DNA of 64,000 nucleotides from Candidatus Peribacteria bacterium. GTDB lineage: Bacteria > Patescibacteriota > Gracilibacteria > UBA1369 > LOWO2-01-FULL-3. The notes under the pieces were generated by a model. That model did not search any database. It saw nothing but the letters and a program-made list of their open reading frames with translations, and was not told where the DNA came from. Shown one piece after another: positions 3,933-15,333 of this stretch. Location of the stretch: assembly GCA_943358175.1 (NCBI GenBank), contig CALRGV010000005.1, positions 1 through 64,000 of the forward strand. The letters run 5' to 3'. Each line of letters begins with the position of its first letter. Within the stretch, counting starts at the first letter, position 1. Made by a program: the position numbers and the translations under genes.

Positions 3933-5456
3933 TTACTCTACTACTTTCCCTCCAAACATTTCTAAGGCATCCTCCACAGAGCTACTATCTGCAATAACCG
4001 GCTGTACCTCGACCTCATCCTCCACCACTGATTTTATTTCCACAGTCTTCACTAATGCCGTCACTTTTACCGCATGTTTAAATATTTCTTGAATCACTCC
4101 TTCCAGCTCCACCCTGTGCCCGGATTCAAAAACTTTATCCTTATGGAAATTTGTGGCAAATTGCAGAGTCAATTCGGCACCATCAAGACTTACCGGTTTT
4201 CCATTTTTCAGAGAATTTCTTAATGATGGTGTTTTAATTCTCTCCACTACTCTTGGCCAATTTTGAAGAATGTTTGCCATAGTTAGATCGATTGGGACAT
4301 TTGGCACATTTTCTACGGTGGTAGTTTTTACAATTGCTTGATGAGGTCTTTCTTGTGGCACTGTTACTGCTACAGCTACTACCTTTTCCACTTCCGCAAC
4401 TTTCTGCTCCACCTTCACCGGTTGAAATTCCTCCAAATTATTTGTCAGTTCTATCACCGCTATCTCCAATGCAAGCTGCGGAATATCCGCATCCAGACGC
4501 TGCTGCGCCTTTTGCAGCACTTCTATCATTTTAATTAATCTCGCTAGTGATCTCCTGTCTTCCGCGACTACGGCTTCCAGCATCTTATTTCTCAATAAAT
4601 CCACGAATTCATGGGAGAATTGTCTGAAGTCACTGCCTTGTATATGCAGCTCATTGATAATAGACAAAGCTCCTTTAGTTTGGTTTTTCATCAGCGCTTC
4701 ATACATATTTTCCAGTAAACTCAGTCCACTAATTCCCAATAATTCCTGTACTCTTTCCAAATCCAATTTATTATCCAGAGTCAATTGCTCCAGTAATCCA
4801 ATTGCATCCCTCAGCCCACCATTTACATATTTACTAATTGCCTCAAGAGCCCTATCGTCAGCCGTAATACCCTCCAATTGAGAAATATAGCTCAGTCTCG
4901 TCATCAGGGCTTTCGTGGTAATTCTTTTGAAATCAAACCTCTGACAGCGCGAAATAATAGTTTCCGGAATTTTATGTGCCTCAGTCGTAGCCAAAATAAA
5001 ATAGGCATGGGCTGGAGGTTCTTCCAATGTCTTCAATAAGGCATTAAAAGCTTCCTTCGTCATCATGTGTACCTCGTCGATAATATAGACTTTCACCTTG
5101 GATCTTGTTGGAGCAAAATTTATTTTTTCCTTCAAATCACGTACTTCATCGATACCACGATTGGAGGCAGCATCAATTTCAATCAAATCAATCAATCTAC
5201 CTTCTCCAATTTCTTTGCAAAATTCGCATTCCCCACATGGCTCAAAACTATCCTTAAGATTCTGACAATTCAGAGCTTTAGCCAAAAGTCTGGCCGTGGA
5301 AGTTTTCCCCGTACCACGTGGGCCTGTAAATAAATAAGCATGAGAAACATGCCCTGATTTAAAGGCATTCATCAAAGTGATTTTCACATGATCTTGTCCA
5401 ACCAGATTGTCAAAATTGTGCGGTCTATATTTGCGATACAAAGAAATTTCCTCCAT
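3933..5456 (-). CDS. dnaX: DNA polymerase III subunit gamma/tau
   Basis: The clamp-loader ATPase of the replicative polymerase. The N-terminal 220 residues are typical: RPHNFDNLVGQ, Walker A GPRGTGKTS (about residues 45-53), a four-Cys zinc site (Cys64 and the CGECEFC cluster), Walker B IIDEVHM, and sensor ISRCQRF. A three-helix domain III and a shorter tau-like tail rich in Val/Glu follow. The total of 507 aa is on the short side, as usual outside Proteobacteria. It is the last gene of a leftward run and ends at the palindromic repeat shared with ligA. A programmed frameshift site for gamma is not evident. Confidence 0.95.
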   Translation of the reverse strand: MEEISLYRKYRPHNFDNLVGQDHVKITLMNAFKSGHVSHAYLFTGPRGTGKTSTARLLAKALNCQNLKDSFEPCGECEFCKEIGEGRLIDLIEIDAASNRGIDEVRDLKEKINFAPTRSKVKVYIIDEVHMMTKEAFNALLKTLEEPPAHAYFILATTEAHKIPETIISRCQRFDFKRITTKALMTRLSYISQLEGITADDRALEAISKYVNGGLRDAIGLLEQLTLDNKLDLERVQELLGISGLSLLENMYEALMKNQTKGALSIINELHIQGSDFRQFSHEFVDLLRNKMLEAVVAEDRRSLARLIKMIEVLQKAQQRLDADIPQLALEIAVIELTNNLEEFQPVKVEQKVAEVEKVVAVAVTVPQERPHQAIVKTTTVENVPNVPIDLTMANILQNWPRVVERIKTPSLRNSLKNGKPVSLDGAELTLQFATNFHKDKVFESGHRVELEGVIQEIFKHAVKVTALVKTVEIKSVVEDEVEVQPVIADSSSVEDALEMFGGKVVE

Positions 5457-10632: not shown

Positions 10633-10694
10633 GGTTGTTTTTTTATTAACAACCACAGGCTAGCACTCAAATCTAAAATTTTCTTAAATTTTTT

Positions 10695-10835
10695 CTAAAA
10701 TTTTCCTAAAATCTGCGCTTTGGTGAATGAATCTGATAAATAAGCCACACTTGCCGGCATTGCCGCCACAGCAATCAACATAAGTACCGCAATTACCAAG
10801 AAAGTTTTGAATCTCCAGAGCTTACTTTTAGACAT
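10695..10835 (-). CDS. Small single-pass membrane protein (46 aa)
   Basis: It starts at ATG 10835 (MSKSKLWRFK); the longer GTG-initiated frame runs through the promoter. A basic N-terminus is followed by one hydrophobic helix (TFLVIAVLMLIAVAAMPASV) and a short polar tail. It could equally be an exported peptide cut after an Ala. A strong promoter directly upstream supports it as a real gene. The function is unknown. Confidence 0.6.
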   Translation of the reverse strand: MSKSKLWRFKTFLVIAVLMLIAVAAMPASVAYLSDSFTKAQILGKF

Positions 10836-11000: not shown

Positions 11001-11270
11001 TTATTTAAGATAAACTTCTCTTCTATGTCTAATATTCAAAATCATCAGAATCTGAATATTTCCTGATTTATCTACCGTGAAAATAGCTCGATAATCTCCA
11101 ATACGAAATCTACTTTTGTTATTTCCAAAACCATTCAACTGCTTTGAGAATTTACTTATATCTTTCTGCTGCGCAAAAAAAACCAGCTTTTTAATGATTC
11201 TTTGAGCTATAGACTTATCGATTTTTTTTAAATCTATTATGGAGTTTTCAGAGTACACCAATTTGTACAT
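11001..11270 (-). CDS. RelE/ParE-type toxin
   Basis: An 89-aa RelE/ParE superfamily toxin, probably an mRNA-cleaving ribosome-dependent RNase or a gyrase poison. The start MYKLVYSENSIIDLKKI, the central RFRIGDYRAIF strand and the end ILNIRHRREVY match the RelE fold, including the basic residues near the C-terminus. It lies 4 bp downstream of its antitoxin, the usual antitoxin-first order. Which RelE subfamily it belongs to cannot be decided here. Confidence 0.88.
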   Translation of the reverse strand: MYKLVYSENSIIDLKKIDKSIAQRIIKKLVFFAQQKDISKFSKQLNGFGNNKSRFRIGDYRAIFTVDKSGNIQILMILNIRHRREVYLK

Positions 11271-11274
11271 AAAA

Positions 11275-11526
11275 TCAGATTAAACCAAATTCCTTCATTG
11301 CCTCCTCTTGTGTGTAAAATTTACCATCTTTGATCTGTTTTTCGGATTCTTCCAGTTCCCTTGAAAGTTTCGTGTAGGCATATTCTTTCTCATCTATTGG
11401 TGTTATTTCAAGAACAGGAATATTCTTTCTGAGAATAATAAACTTAATTTTTTTCTTATTCGCCTGAGATGTGTATTGAGACATGTTCTGGCGAAAATCC
11501 TTCATTCCTAGAAATTTTGTAGTCAT
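11275..11526 (-). CDS. Phd/YefM-like antitoxin
   Basis: An 83-aa antitoxin partner of the RelE-like toxin. The N-terminal region (FLGMKDFRQNMSQY ... FIILRKNIPVLEI) has the Phd/YefM DNA-binding pattern. The charged C-terminus (LEESEKQIKDGKFYTQEEA) would wrap the toxin. A 10-bp perfect palindrome AGTGTACACT at 11552-11561 lies just upstream and is a good candidate autoregulatory operator. The gene begins 65 bp downstream of tRNA-Val on the same strand. Confidence 0.85.
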   Translation of the reverse strand: MTTKFLGMKDFRQNMSQYTSQANKKKIKFIILRKNIPVLEITPIDEKEYAYTKLSRELEESEKQIKDGKFYTQEEAMKEFGLI

Positions 11527-11551
11527 AAGATTTACTTTTAAGTTTACCTTA

Positions 11552-11561
11552 AGTGTACACT
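11552..11561. promoter_or_regulatory. Candidate toxin-antitoxin operator
   Basis: A perfect palindrome AGTGTACACT 26 bp upstream of the antitoxin start, with imperfect flanking symmetry. The position and symmetry fit autorepression by the Phd/YefM-like antitoxin; this is inference from family behaviour. Confidence 0.5.
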
Positions 11562-11590
11562 AAGAAAGTAGTTATAGCAACTTTTTTTTC

Positions 11591-11666
11591 TGGTGGGCGA
11601 TAGTGGGTTCGAACCACTGGCCTTCCGCAAGTCAAGCGGACGCTCTACCAACTGAGCTAATCGCCC
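11591..11666 (-). tRNA. tRNA-Val (GAC)
   Basis: A complete 76-nt cloverleaf with encoded CCA. The acceptor is GGGCGAT / ATCGCCC, the D arm GCTC...GAGC, the anticodon stem TCCGC / GCGGA with loop TTGACTT (anticodon GAC), and the T arm AGTGG-TTCGAAC-CCACT. Position 37, next to the anticodon, is T, whereas a purine is nearly universal. Everything else is canonical. Confidence 0.9.
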
Positions 11667-11735
11667 CTATTGAATGATTTCGGCCGCCCCATTCTATAAA
11701 TAATCTTGCCAATTGTCTAATTTATTAAATGCCCC

Positions 11736-11764
11736 TTGAAGAATTTCTGAAATGTGGCTAAAAT
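11736..11764 (+). promoter_or_regulatory. Promoter for 11791-12678
   Basis: TTGAAG (11736-11741), a 17-bp spacer and TAAAAT (11759-11764), preceded by TGGC. The start point should be near 11772, about 19 nt before ATG 11791. Confidence 0.65.
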
Positions 11765-11790
11765 ACAGTACATATCGACTATAAAAATTT

Positions 11791-12678
11791 ATGGATCAAA
11801 AAAACACCAACCCGGCCGCAAATCAGGGCCAACAAAAGCCACCACAACCACCAAAACCTGCGGCTCAGCAGCCTACACCGCCACCGGCTCAAACAGGAGC
11901 TGCCCAGGGACAACAAATACCACCGGCTTACTATCCTCCACAGGGGCAAATGCCTCCTCAAGGGTATCCGCAGGGAATGCCGCCTCAACCGGGCGCTTAT
12001 GCCCAGCAGGGCATGCCGGGAGGCACACCTCCAATGTACGGTGATCCATATGCTCAGCAAGGCATGCAGGGAGGTTATTATCCTCCACAGGGCTACTATC
12101 CTCCACAGGGACAAATGCCCGGATATCCACCAATGCCGCCTCAGGGTTATTCACCACAAGGCTATCCTCAGCCGGGAGCATATCCACAACCGGGAATGCC
12201 GGGAGGTTTTCCACCACAAGATCAGGGAATGATGCCGCAAGGCGCTATGCCTGGACAAATGCCTGGATATCCACCAATGCCACCAGCCGAAGATACTACT
12301 CCGGCAAATTTTCAATTGGGTACCAAATTTCCGGCAAAATTAAATGTGACTGCACCAAAAAGCGATCTGAAATACGATGACGAATATTTTATTCGCGTAT
12401 TGGCCGGTTCAATTTCTCTTTCCAAGGATGAAAAGAAAAAGATTATCGAATCGATTCCAAAGCTGAAACAAGCCCAGATCGACGAGCTAATTCGTATTTT
12501 CGAGGAAGAAAAGCAGAAATTCGCCGCTCTTTCCAAGAAGCATCTACCACAGCTCGAAAAATTGGCTCAACAACATTATGATGAGTGGATGGAACTCGAA
12601 CACGAATGGGACCAATCTCAAAAGAAAACTGAGGACACCAGCAAAGCCGACGCAATCAGGAAGTCTCTGGGGCTGTAG
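11791..12678 (+). CDS. Pro/Gln/Gly/Tyr-rich protein with helical C-terminal domain
   Basis: 295 aa. Residues 15-165 are a low-complexity tract of PPQGY/QGMP-type repeats (Pro, Gln, Gly, Tyr, Met), the composition typical of sticky disordered or surface-exposed tails. Residues about 170-295 are a charged helical domain ([20 protein letters not shown], then [12 protein letters not shown]) and a Trp-containing coiled-coil end. There is no signal peptide, so the location is uncertain. The C-terminal module resembles part of the left-edge protein (1-317). I do not assign a function. Confidence 0.75.
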
Positions 12679-12688
12679 TAAAAAATTA

Positions 12689-12717
12689 TTGATAAAAATA
12701 TTCGCATAGTATATAAT
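12689..12717 (+). promoter_or_regulatory. Promoter for candidate small RNA
   Basis: TTGATA (12689-12694), exactly 17 bp, then TATAAT (12712-12717). No coding sequence follows; the transcript would run directly into the hairpin at 12731-12792. Confidence 0.75.
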
Positions 12718-12723
12718 ATCACT

Positions 12724-12800
12724 AGAATTGCTCTTAGCTCGAACTGTGGCGTTGATCGTCGCGTTCCCTATAACTGGGGATAGAGCTAAGAGATTTTTTT
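12724..12800 (+). ncRNA. Candidate small structured RNA ending in a terminator
   Basis: About 77 nt from the predicted start to a T-run. The outer stem is CTCTTAGCTC (12731-12740) with GAGCTAAGAG (12783-12792), a perfect 10-bp helix followed by ATTTTTTT. Inside it, GAAC/GTTC flanks one arm and CCC...GGG forms another, so the fold looks like a three-way junction. It is independent of the upstream gene because it has its own consensus promoter. It ends against the 3' end of the convergent DUF3800 gene. It does not match the SRP RNA, tmRNA, hammerhead or 6S patterns I know. Confidence 0.6.
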
Positions 12801-13428
12801 ATAATGTTGGCCAGATTTGAACCAAAATCTCCCTATGTGCAATCATAGTTCTATATTCTAAAGCATTATTTTTTCGATTTTGAATAGACCTATTTACAAT
12901 GCCAGCAATGTAATCAGCAAGTTGTAAAAGGTTGGTTGACCCGGACTTTTGCATTTTTACATGTTTTATTCTTCTGTTAAGATCAGTATTCATTTTTATC
13001 TTTAAATATTTATTGAGTTGTTTTTTGAAGTCTAAACTTCCAGTTTCATCAATCGTGACGCTGGCCTGATAAAGTTTCTCTTTTGCACTTTCAAAAACTA
13101 GACTACATGCATATTTGTAAAACGACTTTTTATCCTTGAATCTTTCTCCGTAAAGTTTAGCCTTATCTAACACAATAGAATAATAAAAAAAGTTGTATGC
13201 CATTACAGCATTTATAAAAGCTCGACGAACATTGTGAGAATTTTTTTTAAAGTGAAATTCATCTTTTTGTTTCCATCCAAGTTCTCGTTTCAAAAGTCCT
13301 ATTTTACGATCACAGGCTTCAGCTTCTTCATTATCCTCAAAAACAACCAAAGCTACCACGAATAGTGGACTTGATCCACTATCTAATTTTAATCCACAAT
13401 CACCAGATTCATCAATGAAAACAAGCAT
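12799..13428 (-). CDS. DUF3800 domain protein
   Basis: 209 aa from ATG 13428 (MLVFIDESGDCG); an in-frame ATG at 13470 would add 14 residues. The N-terminal FIDESGD and the late acidic ALEYR/LLQLADYIAG segment are the DUF3800 hallmarks. The family has a predicted RNase H-like fold with acidic residues and is often found near mobile elements and defence genes, but its activity is not established. DEFHFKK and the C-terminal LADYIAG are well conserved, so it looks intact. Confidence 0.85.
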   Translation of the reverse strand: MLVFIDESGDCGLKLDSGSSPLFVVALVVFEDNEEAEACDRKIGLLKRELGWKQKDEFHFKKNSHNVRRAFINAVMAYNFFYYSIVLDKAKLYGERFKDKKSFYKYACSLVFESAKEKLYQASVTIDETGSLDFKKQLNKYLKIKMNTDLNRRIKHVKMQKSGSTNLLQLADYIAGIVNRSIQNRKNNALEYRTMIAHREILVQIWPTL

Positions 13429-13571
13429 ATTCAGATGTGTGTTTAACTTATTATTTCTACAACCTATCATTCAAAGTTAAAATTTTCTTAAATTAATTCT
13501 AAATTCGCGTTATCTTGCAAAAAGTGAAATTTTGTAATAGGTTTAATTCAACCCATTCCTAATTTTAACCT

Positions 13572-14111
13572 ATGAAAAAAACTCTTACCTGTTTACTTTT
13601 GACCGGCGTATTTTTGACAGCTTGTGGAGCTAAAAACACCATTTCTACCACCACCAAACCATCCGACCAAGCTTTGGATAACAATATTTTTTCAGAAGCC
13701 ACCGGCAGCGGCAATCTCGCTCGTTGCAAGGATATTATGGACACCACGCTGAAAACTTCCTGCGAGCAGGTAATTAATGATAAAAAGGCCACCTCCGCCG
13801 CCATCACAGAGCTAGACAAGAGCAAATGCAGCAAAGTCTCCGACTCAAGATACAAAAAAGAATGCGAAACCCAAGTCGCAGCTAAATTGGAAGCTAAAAA
13901 TGCTGATACAAAAAGACTTTCCATCGAACAAAGCGCGGTGGATAAAGGAGATGCGAGCTTATGCGACGGAATTGCCGACAAAAATCAGCAAGGCGCCTGC
14001 AAGTACAATATTCTGAGCAATCAGGCGATGCTGAAAAAAGACCCATCCCTTTGCGAGGGTATAGGTCTTAAGAATTTAATTTTGCAATGCAAGGATTTCT
14101 TAAAAAAGTAG
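13572..14111 (+). CDS. Lipoprotein with four Cys-pair repeats
   Basis: 179 aa. The signal is MKKTLTCLLLTGVFLTAC with lipobox LTAC. The mature protein contains four related units of about 25-45 residues, each with two Cys separated by 12-13 residues: RCKDIMDTTLKTSC, KCSKVSDSRYKKEC, LCDGIADKNQQGAC and LCEGIGLKNLILQC. Each unit probably forms a disulfide-locked helical hairpin outside the membrane. I do not know a named family. The downstream neighbour is convergent. Confidence 0.85.
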   Translation: MKKTLTCLLLTGVFLTACGAKNTISTTTKPSDQALDNNIFSEATGSGNLARCKDIMDTTLKTSCEQVINDKKATSAAITELDKSKCSKVSDSRYKKECETQVAAKLEAKNADTKRLSIEQSAVDKGDASLCDGIADKNQQGACKYNILSNQAMLKKDPSLCEGIGLKNLILQCKDFLKK

Positions 14112-14115
14112 GCTA

Positions 14116-15333
14116 TTACAGAGCTGGATCGAGACATAATGCAAATGCGTACAAATTTTTAGCAGCATCCTCTGTGTTTTTAGCATAAGCTGTACAGGTT
14201 GAGTTTGTGTAGTCAGGAACCAGTGAGTTCAAATATCCCCATCCGCTAAGATCCGCACCGCAGCTAAGCAGTTTTTCTGAACCGTTACAGCTCGCTACTG
14301 TCGAGCCAGTTCCTCCGGCTGCTAAAGAAGCGACTGCCGACTGTCGTCTATTTGTAGTTCCAAATCCTCCTTTTGCCTTTATTTTACCTGAAGCTTGGAT
14401 ATTTCCTGCTTCTATTGTTACATCTCCTATACCCTCATTAAAAACATCGAGGTGCTTGAAATAAGCTGCACCATCACTCCAAAGAGCTCCTGTACTTTGA
14501 AAATCTTTTGTTTTTAACCATACCCCCGCGGTGACATCACCCTCAACCGATAAGCTGTCAGCTATCTTTACAGGCAAAGGATCCCCGTTGTTATCTGTAT
14601 TGCTATTCACAATACCATACCAGGCATCCAGTGGGCTTTGAATCCTGAGTTTGCCACTTGGAGATGTAGACTCAATACCAGAATCGTCGGTTAAAGCCAG
14701 AGCAGCTCCTGTGATACCACCTGTTGTCTTCAAAAAGTTTCCAGTAACACCACCAGTTGCCACCAGTTCTAGAGCGTTTACGGCTCCTGTAGGAACATCA
14801 ACCGCGCCTGTTACTTTAACATTATCATCCAAAACAACGTCTCCACCATTCGCATTAGTTGAATTTTTAATTGCTTCAGTAACATCCATTTTTCCCTTAA
14901 TTTGCAGAGTGCCAGCTAGCGGAGTTATAGAACCTTCATCTCCATTAATTTTAATAGGCTTATTAGCCGCGGCATTTTTGCCATAAACTCCAAAATTATC
15001 ACGAATTGCCACAATACCTGTACCGTCAAGGTCACGACTTTTAATTCCCCAGCCTGAATCTATCAACAAACCTGAAATTGCCGTTATTGGTCCCTGAGCC
15101 TGCAAAGAATCATCAATAAAAACTGCTCCACCAGCTATTGCTGCCGGATCACTATTTTTGATTTTACCTTGAATATCCACGCCCTCAAACACAGGCGAAT
15201 ACAACGCCGCTTCAGTCGGATTTTGCGTCGGCGTAGCCACACCAAAAGCCACGTTGGCTCCCAGAGTCACAACACCGGCAAAAACTGCCACACCGGCAGC
15301 TACAAGAGAATTCTTTAAAGAAGAGTTTTTCAT
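14116..15333 (-). CDS. Secreted repeat-rich surface protein
   Basis: 405 aa with a typical signal peptide (SLVAAGVAVFAGVVTLGANV, cleavage near AFG-VA). The mature protein is Gly/Asp/Ala-rich with recurring short strands (for example GGAVFIDDS, GGDVVLDDN, VTGAVDVPTG), suggesting a beta-solenoid or fibre-like structure. A C-terminal Cys-containing cap (SCNGSEKLLSCGADLSGWGY) completes it. Convergent tail-fibre or pilus-tip proteins look similar, but I cannot assign a family. A strong promoter lies immediately upstream. Confidence 0.75.
   Translation of the reverse strand: MKNSSLKNSLVAAGVAVFAGVVTLGANVAFGVATPTQNPTEAALYSPVFEGVDIQGKIKNSDPAAIAGGAVFIDDSLQAQGPITAISGLLIDSGWGIKSRDLDGTGIVAIRDNFGVYGKNAAANKPIKINGDEGSITPLAGTLQIKGKMDVTEAIKNSTNANGGDVVLDDNVKVTGAVDVPTGAVNALELVATGGVTGNFLKTTGGITGAALALTDDSGIESTSPSGKLRIQSPLDAWYGIVNSNTDNNGDPLPVKIADSLSVEGDVTAGVWLKTKDFQSTGALWSDGAAYFKHLDVFNEGIGDVTIEAGNIQASGKIKAKGGFGTTNRRQSAVASLAAGGTGSTVASCNGSEKLLSCGADLSGWGYLNSLVPDYTNSTCTAYAKNTEDAAKNLYAFALCLDPAL

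What the first reader, a model, noticed from the sequence alone, without database searches (positions are those of the whole stretch)
12689..12800. Candidate small RNA with its own promoter and terminator
A textbook promoter (TTGATA, 17 bp, TATAAT) is followed by no ORF. The roughly 77-nt sequence folds into a perfect 10-bp outer stem with two inner arms and a T-run. It matches no RNA class that I know.
Basis: partly seen in the sequence, partly recalled or inferred. Interest (0 to 1): 0.55.

Follow-up and report, generated by a model that had tools for sequence, protein, structure and literature searches.

The report
Partner RNA of a mobile nuclease
The predicted small RNA is real and belongs to a catalogued but functionally unexplained class (DUF3800-IX); it is one half of a compact unit, RNA plus an RNase-like protein gene placed tail to tail, that moves between bacteria and probably works by the RNA controlling the nuclease.

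Summary
In detail: promoter TTGATA-17-TATAAT, a three-way-junction fold with a 10-bp outer stem, then a T-run. The interpretation 'matches no known class' is wrong. Window 12730-12797(+) is Rfam RF02968, DUF3800-IX RNA (52.9 bits, cut-off 36.8). The next gene, 12799-13428(-), encodes a DUF3800 protein; its stop codon lies in the RNA's T-run. Searching by protein gave 88 loci: 83 carry this RNA, always on the opposite strand at the gene's 3' end, and the other 5 (viral contigs) carry another structured RNA there. Covariation is strong, and a promoter at a fixed place is found in 53 of 81. RNA plus gene form an about 830-bp unit that is absent from this site in 3 of 3 other genomes of the genus, and near-identical units elsewhere have unrelated flanks. 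The protein is predicted to have an RNase HII fold. RNA copies without the gene occur, some in tandem with another RNA; no DUF3800-IX-type gene in a cellular genome lacked the RNA. Best reading, inferred: the RNA binds and restrains the nuclease, antitoxin-like; a ribonucleoprotein defence complex is the main rival. A further RNA class, paired with another DUF3800 clade and not in Rfam, was found on the way.

The parts
12689..12717 (+). sigma-70-type promoter of the RNA (TTGATA, 17 bp, TATAAT)
   Evidence: a promoter at the same place in 53 of 81 relatives against 2.5 (sd 1.5, maximum 6) in 200 rounds of shuffles
12724..12729 (+). conserved leader AGAATT just 5' of the outer stem (subclass A leader, consensus UGGAAUU); likely near the transcription start
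   Evidence: leader type splits the protein tree with one change; start site inferred
12730..12797 (+). DUF3800-IX small RNA (Rfam RF02968), three-way junction: outer stem 12731-12740/12783-12792, arm 1 12745-12763, arm 2 12765-12780
   Evidence: covariation
12794..12800 (+). T-run ending the RNA (intrinsic terminator together with the outer stem); overlaps the stop codon of the DUF3800 gene
12799..13428 (-). DUF3800 gene (likely start ATG at 13428, MLVFIDESGD...; longest ORF to 13470), predicted RNase HII-like nuclease, convergent with the RNA
   Evidence: PF12686 E 1.4e-15; relatives start at MLVFID; model and fold match
12680..13513 (.). inserted mobile unit (RNA promoter, RNA, DUF3800 gene, gene upstream region); right end approximate
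   Evidence: 872 bp (12680-13551) in the window against 52 bp in G064 and G078, alignment; G379 also lacks it

Best explanation
Window 12680-13513 is a horizontally mobile two-part unit. Part one is a DUF3800-IX RNA made from its own promoter, folded as a three-way junction and ended at a T-run (shown by sequence, covariation and family match; expression not measured). Part two, tail to tail with it, is a small DUF3800 protein with an RNase HII-like fold and invariant acidic residues (predicted). The two travel as a unit, and the RNA subtype follows the protein clade (shown). Inferred: the RNA binds its cognate protein and holds the nuclease in check, in the manner of an RNA antitoxin; when the RNA is lost or overcome, for example in phage infection or when the unit is lost, the nuclease attacks host nucleic acid. 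This would explain why gene-less RNA copies persist while RNA-less genes are not seen in this clade. Rough confidence by step: class 0.97, unit and mobility 0.9, direct RNA-protein partnership 0.75, restraint rather than activation 0.4.
For: RF02968 match. Of 88 loci found by protein, 81 have the RNA with model R1, 2 more with R2 and the other 5 (viral) have a different structured RNA in the same place; in the 81 R1 loci the RNA is always on the opposite strand, -43 to +88 nt from the stop codon. Covariation: 21 of 24 pairs change on both sides, score 0.595 against 0.233 shuffled and 0.074-0.174 slid; 290 G-U against 42 A-C cells in the stems point to RNA of that strand rather than a DNA hairpin. 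Promoter in 53 of 81. Leader type: one change on the protein tree, shuffled mean 20.1. Unit boundaries: pairs 84-90% identical share only about 830-880 bp; empty site in 3 of 3 other genomes of the genus. Fold: pLDDT 93.7, RNase HII best by Foldseek (E 2.7e-5) and VIA-align (Z 13.1); D6, D127, D172 invariant in 72 proteins. Asymmetry: of 20 RNA copies found by RNA search 13 have the gene at the 3' side, 7 do not, while 80 of 80 cellular loci found by protein have the RNA.
Against: No toxicity, binding or expression data. Gene-less RNAs may be decaying relics: 4 of 7 gene-less or tandem IX copies show no promoter by my test. An insert carrying two RNAs without a gene (L027) could mean that RNA copies are mobilised as such. 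Convergent genes are not the usual layout of RNA-antitoxin operons (recalled). Two frameshifted DUF3800 genes keep their RNA, which fits the model but may be sequencing error.
Confidence: 0.45

Rival explanations
1. Ribonucleoprotein nuclease: the RNA is an essential subunit (scaffold, sensor or short guide) of an active DUF3800 complex, for example an anti-phage effector.
For: Obligate pairing and matched RNA and protein subtypes; DUF3800 proteins occur as accessories in CRISPR V-A2 and VI-F loci and DUF3800 has an RNase H fold (passages of PMC10910872 and PMC12669027); PADLOC models PDC-M04A and DUF3800_VII match.
Against: No variable guide-length stretch: apart from the conserved leader nearly all of the RNA is structured. 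Gene-less RNA copies persist (7 of 20), with no evident use in a complex. No CRISPR, reverse transcriptase or other effector next to the unit in the window.
Confidence: 0.3
2. Transposition-related: the structured element is the cis-acting end or cofactor of a minimal mobile element, the DUF3800 protein (RNase H superfamily fold) moves it, and RNA-only copies are non-autonomous.
For: Unit is mobile with sharp borders; an about 300-bp insert with two RNAs and no gene splits a restriction-modification gene; tandem copies in L021, L028 and L194.
Against: Copy number is about one per genome (53 copies in 49 of 50 genomes) and copies in one genome differ in sequence. No terminal repeats or target duplication seen by eye. 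G-U bias and promoter argue for function as RNA.
Confidence: 0.12
3. Cis regulator only: the RNA is an antisense or convergent transcript, or a two-way terminator, that limits DUF3800 mRNA, with no protein contact.
For: Invariant convergent position within -43 to +88 nt of the stop codon; the DUF3800 mRNA, if it runs on, is antisense to the RNA.
Against: Compensatory change in all three helices and near-invariant unpaired junction bases (A3) go beyond a terminator; antisense action would not need them. Gene-less copies exist.
Confidence: 0.1
4. Chance hairpin or a plain terminator of the upstream proline-rich gene.
For: A stem and T-run lie 50-120 nt downstream of that gene's stop codon.
Against: Family match, covariation, and the same element beside unrelated genes in other genomes; absent behind the same gene in 3 of 3 congeners.
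Confidence: 0.01

Closest known systems
DUF3800-IX RNA (Rfam RF02968)
   Same: Sequence, three-way-junction structure, length, neighbouring DUF3800 gene
   Different: Nothing of substance; the window RNA is a member. Not found in the papers I could search: mobile unit, empty site, gene-less and tandem copies, invariant tail-to-tail layout (original 2017 paper not held)
Type III toxin-antitoxin systems (recalled: ToxIN and kin)
   Same: Small structured RNA paired with a small protein of presumed nuclease activity; one compact unit, patchy and mobile
   Different: RNA is a single unit, convergent at the 3' end of the gene with its own promoter, not a repeat array upstream in one operon; protein fold predicted as RNase HII
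Retron type VII effector (PADLOC model DUF3800_VII; link to retrons recalled)
   Same: DUF3800 protein with a non-coding RNA partner; the second DUF3800 clade matches this model with 90-106 bits
   Different: No reverse transcriptase among the neighbours scanned; the window protein matches only weakly (7.1e-6)
DUF3800 accessories of CRISPR V-A2 and VI-F (PMC10910872, PMC12669027, passages read)
   Same: DUF3800 nuclease domain in a context with RNA
   Different: No Cas genes among the neighbours scanned and no CRISPR family match in the window
RNase HII
   Same: Predicted fold (Z 13.1); the start D-E-S-G recalls RNase HII's D-E-A-G motif (recalled)
   Different: Sequence identity 11-17% in the top RNase HII rows; paired with an RNA; the E after the first D is not invariant (D in FIDDSGD, K in L058)

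Membership tests
DUF3800-IX RNA (RF02968) | Covariance-model score above the curated cut-off | tested here: met
   52.9 bits against 36.8, full length 1-67 of 67
DUF3800-IX RNA (RF02968) | Three-way junction with conserved GAAC and UAG junction bases | tested here: met
DUF3800-IX RNA (RF02968) | Lies near a DUF3800 gene | tested here: met
   PF12686 E 1.4e-15 at 12799-13470(-)
Type III toxin-antitoxin | RNA antitoxin encoded upstream of the toxin in the same operon, usually as tandem repeats | tested here: not met
   RNA convergent at the gene's 3' end in 81 of 81 R1 loci; a single RNA at the 3' side, a second RNA only at the 5' side in L021 and L028
Type III toxin-antitoxin | Protein toxic, RNA neutralises it by binding | not testable with these tools
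   needs experiment
Retron (type VII) | Reverse transcriptase gene and msr-msd RNA beside the effector | tested here: not met
   no reverse transcriptase among 7 proteins scanned between 11001 and 17207; msr-msd not searched for
CRISPR V-A2 or VI-F accessory | Cas effector and CRISPR array in the locus | tested here: not met
   no CRISPR family at gathering score in the window; no Cas family among 7 neighbours
RNase HII | RNase HII fold | tested here: met
   Foldseek E 2.7e-5, VIA Z 13.1, rmsd 2.8 over 156 residues on a predicted model
RNase HII | DEDD catalytic set | tested here: inconclusive
   D6, D127, D172 invariant in 72 proteins; E7 varies; geometry not compared
Integron cassette (attC site) | attC core boxes and single-strand DNA recombination | not tested
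   considered only; G-U against A-C count and promoter favour an RNA

The most novel reading that the evidence does not exclude
DUF3800 RNAs, of several unrelated-looking classes, are the RNA half of a widespread RNA-controlled RNase HII-like toxin family that spreads as compact mobile units; bacteria keep gene-less RNAs, sometimes two classes in a row beside restriction, Fic or TOTE genes, as antitoxins that neutralise newly arriving units. The RNA set is larger than catalogued: one further class beside another DUF3800 clade and one on viral contigs are not in Rfam.
Probability: 0.27. Interest if true: 0.85.

Novelty: new member of a known kind. Interest (0 to 1): 0.5.

Why it matters
I found no paper in the held library that assigns a function to DUF3800 RNAs or proteins. 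The results turn a catalogue entry into a testable module: exact borders, a cognate pair, a predicted nuclease fold with candidate catalytic residues, an empty site, and RNA subtypes that track protein clades. If the RNA restrains the nuclease, it is a new layout of RNA-protein addiction or defence present in many candidate-phyla bacteria and several other phyla; if it activates it, it is a new small ribonucleoprotein nuclease.

Tried and rejected
Rejected: chance or plain terminator (conservation, empty sites). DNA-hairpin recombination site as main reading (G-U 290 against A-C 42 cells; 156 against 42 without the two pairs that are nearly always U-G; the alignment was fitted to a model, which may favour standard pairs, though arm 1 was not in model R1). 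CRISPR or retron component. Transposon with terminal repeats: no common ends seen by eye in three close pairs.

Led nowhere: no DUF3800 relative of this clade in the phage and plasmid collections; PDB by sequence gave only one weak hit; paper searches beyond the passages cited gave nothing. The first RNA-model search missed L077 and L112, found later. A first pair count on A7 used a mistyped structure and is replaced, whose structure is RNAalifold's own. A first RM comparison printed nothing and was redone. The count of phylum changes (33 for 26 labels) is uninformative, since 25 is the minimum. I first read L002, L003, L005, L007, L008, L013, L016 and L017 as same-strand pairs, because genome-search loci keep contig strand; one search corrected this.

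Not done: no control for how often restriction, Fic or TOTE genes lie beside random intergenic sites; no unbiased census of DUF3800 genes without RNA; 66 of 146 candidate relatives were not returned; 30 of the 80 genomes were not given. Left out of A4: near-duplicates L060, L095, L117, L119, L120; the six loci flagged (L074, L077, L092, L099, L104, L116), of which one search shows two recoded, two truly frameshifted and two flagged only by stops upstream of the true start; and loci whose tblastn match spanned under 560 bases.

Full report
OBSERVATION. The sequence shows TTGATA (12689-12694), a 17-bp spacer, TATAAT (12712-12717), then a 10-bp outer stem (12731-12740 with 12783-12792) that encloses two arms, and seven T (12794-12800). 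The promoter is the best of 11 promoter-like sites in 11500-14200 (11 of 12 matches). The fold has -29.9 kcal/mol, z -4.69, 0 of 200 shuffles as good.

WHAT IT IS. Rfam places 12730-12797(+) in RF02968, DUF3800-IX RNA, full length, 52.9 bits against a cut-off of 36.8, E 1.4e-8 for the window. The convergent ORF 12799-13470(-) is DUF3800 (PF12686, E 1.4e-15); relatives start at MLVFID, so the gene is probably 12799-13428. Its stop codon lies in the RNA's T-run. Rfam 15's paper lists RF02968 among families whose structure was revised (PMC11701678, passage). The 2017 paper that described these motifs is not held; PMC10910872 cites it for 'DUF3800 ... associated with putative ncRNAs' (passages).

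HOW TIGHT IS THE PAIR. By RNA search in the phylum, 16 of 379 genomes have the RNA (15 above the cut-off; 0 of 14 control genomes), 20 copies in all. Thirteen of the 20 have a DUF3800 gene at the RNA's 3' side, all convergent; 7 do not. Two of the seven (L014, L018) are one identical 75-bp stretch at two contig ends and may be one copy. By protein search, 217 stretches matched, 146 encode relatives, and the best 80 cellular loci were kept; 8 viral loci were added. My model R1 finds the RNA in 81 of these 88 and R2 without filters in 2 more, L077 and L112. In the 81 loci it is always on the strand opposite the gene, -43 to +88 nt from the stop codon. So 80 of 80 cellular loci and 3 of 8 viral ones carry it. 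The 5 viral loci without it (L118-L122) have another structured RNA in the same place, which no Rfam family matches: 30 predicted pairs, 5 with compensatory changes in 5 sequences.

IT IS AN RNA. On 80 distinct sequences, 21 of 24 pairs have changes on both sides; covariation score 0.595, shuffled 0.233 (sd 0.009), slid 0.074-0.174. Mispairs are lopsided: 290 G-U against 42 A-C cells (156 against 42 without two nearly constant U-G pairs), as expected of an RNA from this strand and not of a DNA hairpin. The alignment was fitted to model R1, which may favour standard pairs; arm 1 was not part of that model. A promoter of at least 9 of 12 matches at the expected distance occurs in 53 of 81 loci, against a mean of 2.5 (sd 1.5, maximum 6) in 200 rounds of dinucleotide shuffles. 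Just before the stem stand two leader types, UGGAAUU-like and UACAAA-like. On the protein tree these types need one change (shuffled mean 20.1, 0 of 500 as low; 8 of 72 rows unassigned; one 'A' row, L107, lies on the B side beside the midpoint root, and its leader call is doubtful). So RNA and gene have been inherited together, as expected of cognate partners; co-inheritance alone would also give this.

IT MOVES AS A UNIT. In G064 and G078, same genus, the flanking genes align but 52 bp stand where the window has 872 bp (12680-13551). The alignment puts the insert at about 12680-13513 (right end by eye). G379, the fourth genome of the genus, also lacks it: window 12657 and 13571 lie 47 bp apart there. 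Elsewhere, pairs of loci with 84-90% identical units (L058/L060 Flavobacteriales, L072/L099 Elusimicrobia, L049/L053) share only 827-878 bp, from about the gene's start codon to 98-185 bp beyond the RNA's 5' end; the flanks are unrelated (masked N lie near the ends in L060). Relatives occur in many candidate phyla and in Bacteroidota, Chloroflexota, Planctomycetota, Nitrospirota, Elusimicrobiota, Omnitrophota, Caldisericota and Pseudomonadota, some on contigs over 180 kb (L058, L067, L075, L104), which makes mis-binning less likely there. Two Gracilibacteria copies (L074, L077) have in-frame TGA at glycine positions, so the unit has evolved within a recoded lineage. Copy number is low: 53 copies in 49 of 50 genomes (50 of the 80 loci given).

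THE PROTEIN. The model from 72 sequences has pLDDT 93.7 and pTM 0.91. Foldseek's only matches below 0.001 are four RNase HII chains (best E 2.7e-5); VIA-align gives RNase HII/H2 at Z up to 13.1, then Argonaute PIWI at about 8. D6, D127 and D172 are invariant, E57 nearly so. RNase HII's active site is D, E, D, D (recalled); E7 is not invariant here, so catalysis is likely but unproven. PADLOC models PDC-M04A (5.9e-10) and DUF3800_VII (7.1e-6) match the window protein.

RNAs WITHOUT THEIR GENE. L027: two halves of a type ISP restriction-modification gene align to residues 6-632 and 635-1048 of an intact Paracoccus enzyme; between them lies an insert of about 300 bp with a DUF3800-IX RNA and a second three-way-junction RNA, and no DUF3800 gene. 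L036 has the same two RNA classes in a row, 5' of a Fic gene. L032: RNA 5' of a Fic gene. L183: RNA convergent with a TOTE primase-helicase gene. L022: RNA kept while the DUF3800 gene of its close relative L021 is replaced by an ORF without family. L021 and L028: a second IX RNA, same direction, 5' of a complete unit; in L021 it has the other leader type. Of these gene-less or tandem IX copies, L027 and the second RNA of L021 pass my promoter test at 9 of 12 or more, L032 gives 8, and L022, L183, L037 and the second RNA of L028 give none. No background rate was measured for the defence-type neighbours.

A SECOND, UNLISTED CLASS. Model R3, built from the extra RNA of L027 and L036, finds 8 copies in 7 of 379 genomes. 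Five of the six new copies (L189-L193) lie convergent at the 3' end of a DUF3800 gene of another clade, gaps -13 to +12 nt; the sixth (L194) lies 5' of a DUF3800 gene that has a DUF3800-V RNA (RF02964) 54 nt behind it. Two proteins of this clade score 90 and 106 bits with DUF3800_VII. On 8 sequences 11 of 22 pairs change on both sides; score 0.466, shuffled 0.241 (structure derived from the same alignment). No Rfam family matched it up to E 5.

MECHANISM. Shown: a conserved RNA with its own promoter, always at the 3' end of a nuclease-like gene, moving with it. Inferred: direct partnership. I favour restraint (antitoxin-like), because RNA copies survive without gene while no gene in this clade was seen without RNA; that asymmetry is what a toxin with an RNA antitoxin would leave. 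An active ribonucleoprotein is the main rival, and RNA-marked mobility a lesser one. It works like an RNA antitoxin or retron control at best; it is not filed as type III toxin-antitoxin, because the operon layout fails that test.

VERDICT. The window feature is an ordinary member of a catalogued RNA family; interest comes from the unsolved function and from the context found here.

Noticed in passing
L027:8209-8276(+), L036:67-134(+), L189-L194: A three-way-junction RNA not in Rfam, convergent with DUF3800 genes of another clade in 5 of 6 copies outside L027 and L036; two proteins of this clade match PADLOC DUF3800_VII.
   Followed up: partly
L118:4638-4722(-), L119:4637-4721(-), L120:4637-4721(-), L121:4622-4704(-), L122:4672-4754(-): Another structured RNA tail to tail with DUF3800 genes on IMG/VR viral contigs, not matched by Rfam.
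   Followed up: partly
L027:6871-10321(-): Type ISP restriction-modification gene split by an insert of about 300 bp carrying two gene-less DUF3800-type RNAs.
   Followed up: yes
L194:170-2565: Fic gene, a gene-less copy of the unlisted RNA, then a DUF3800 gene with a DUF3800-V RNA (RF02964) at its 3' end: RNA classes side by side.
   Followed up: partly
window 11001-11526(-): ParE-like toxin gene (PF05016, 6.4e-8) and a Phd/YefM-like antitoxin gene (below Pfam's cut-off) near tRNA-Val, about 1.2 kb from the unit.
   Followed up: no
window 13465-13507 and 10660-10699: A 35-43-bp intergenic repeat just upstream of the DUF3800 gene, with many copies in this genome and its family; perhaps a shared promoter or regulatory element.
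   Followed up: no
L074 and L077, DUF3800 genes at about 4001-4630: In-frame TGA at conserved glycine positions in Gracilibacteria, consistent with TGA = Gly.
   Followed up: partly
L022:9023-9886(-): A second, distant DUF3800 gene (PF12686, 1.5e-5) near the gene-less RNA of G078.
   Followed up: no
L099 and L116: DUF3800 genes with a frameshift near codon 73-78 while their RNA is intact.
   Followed up: partly
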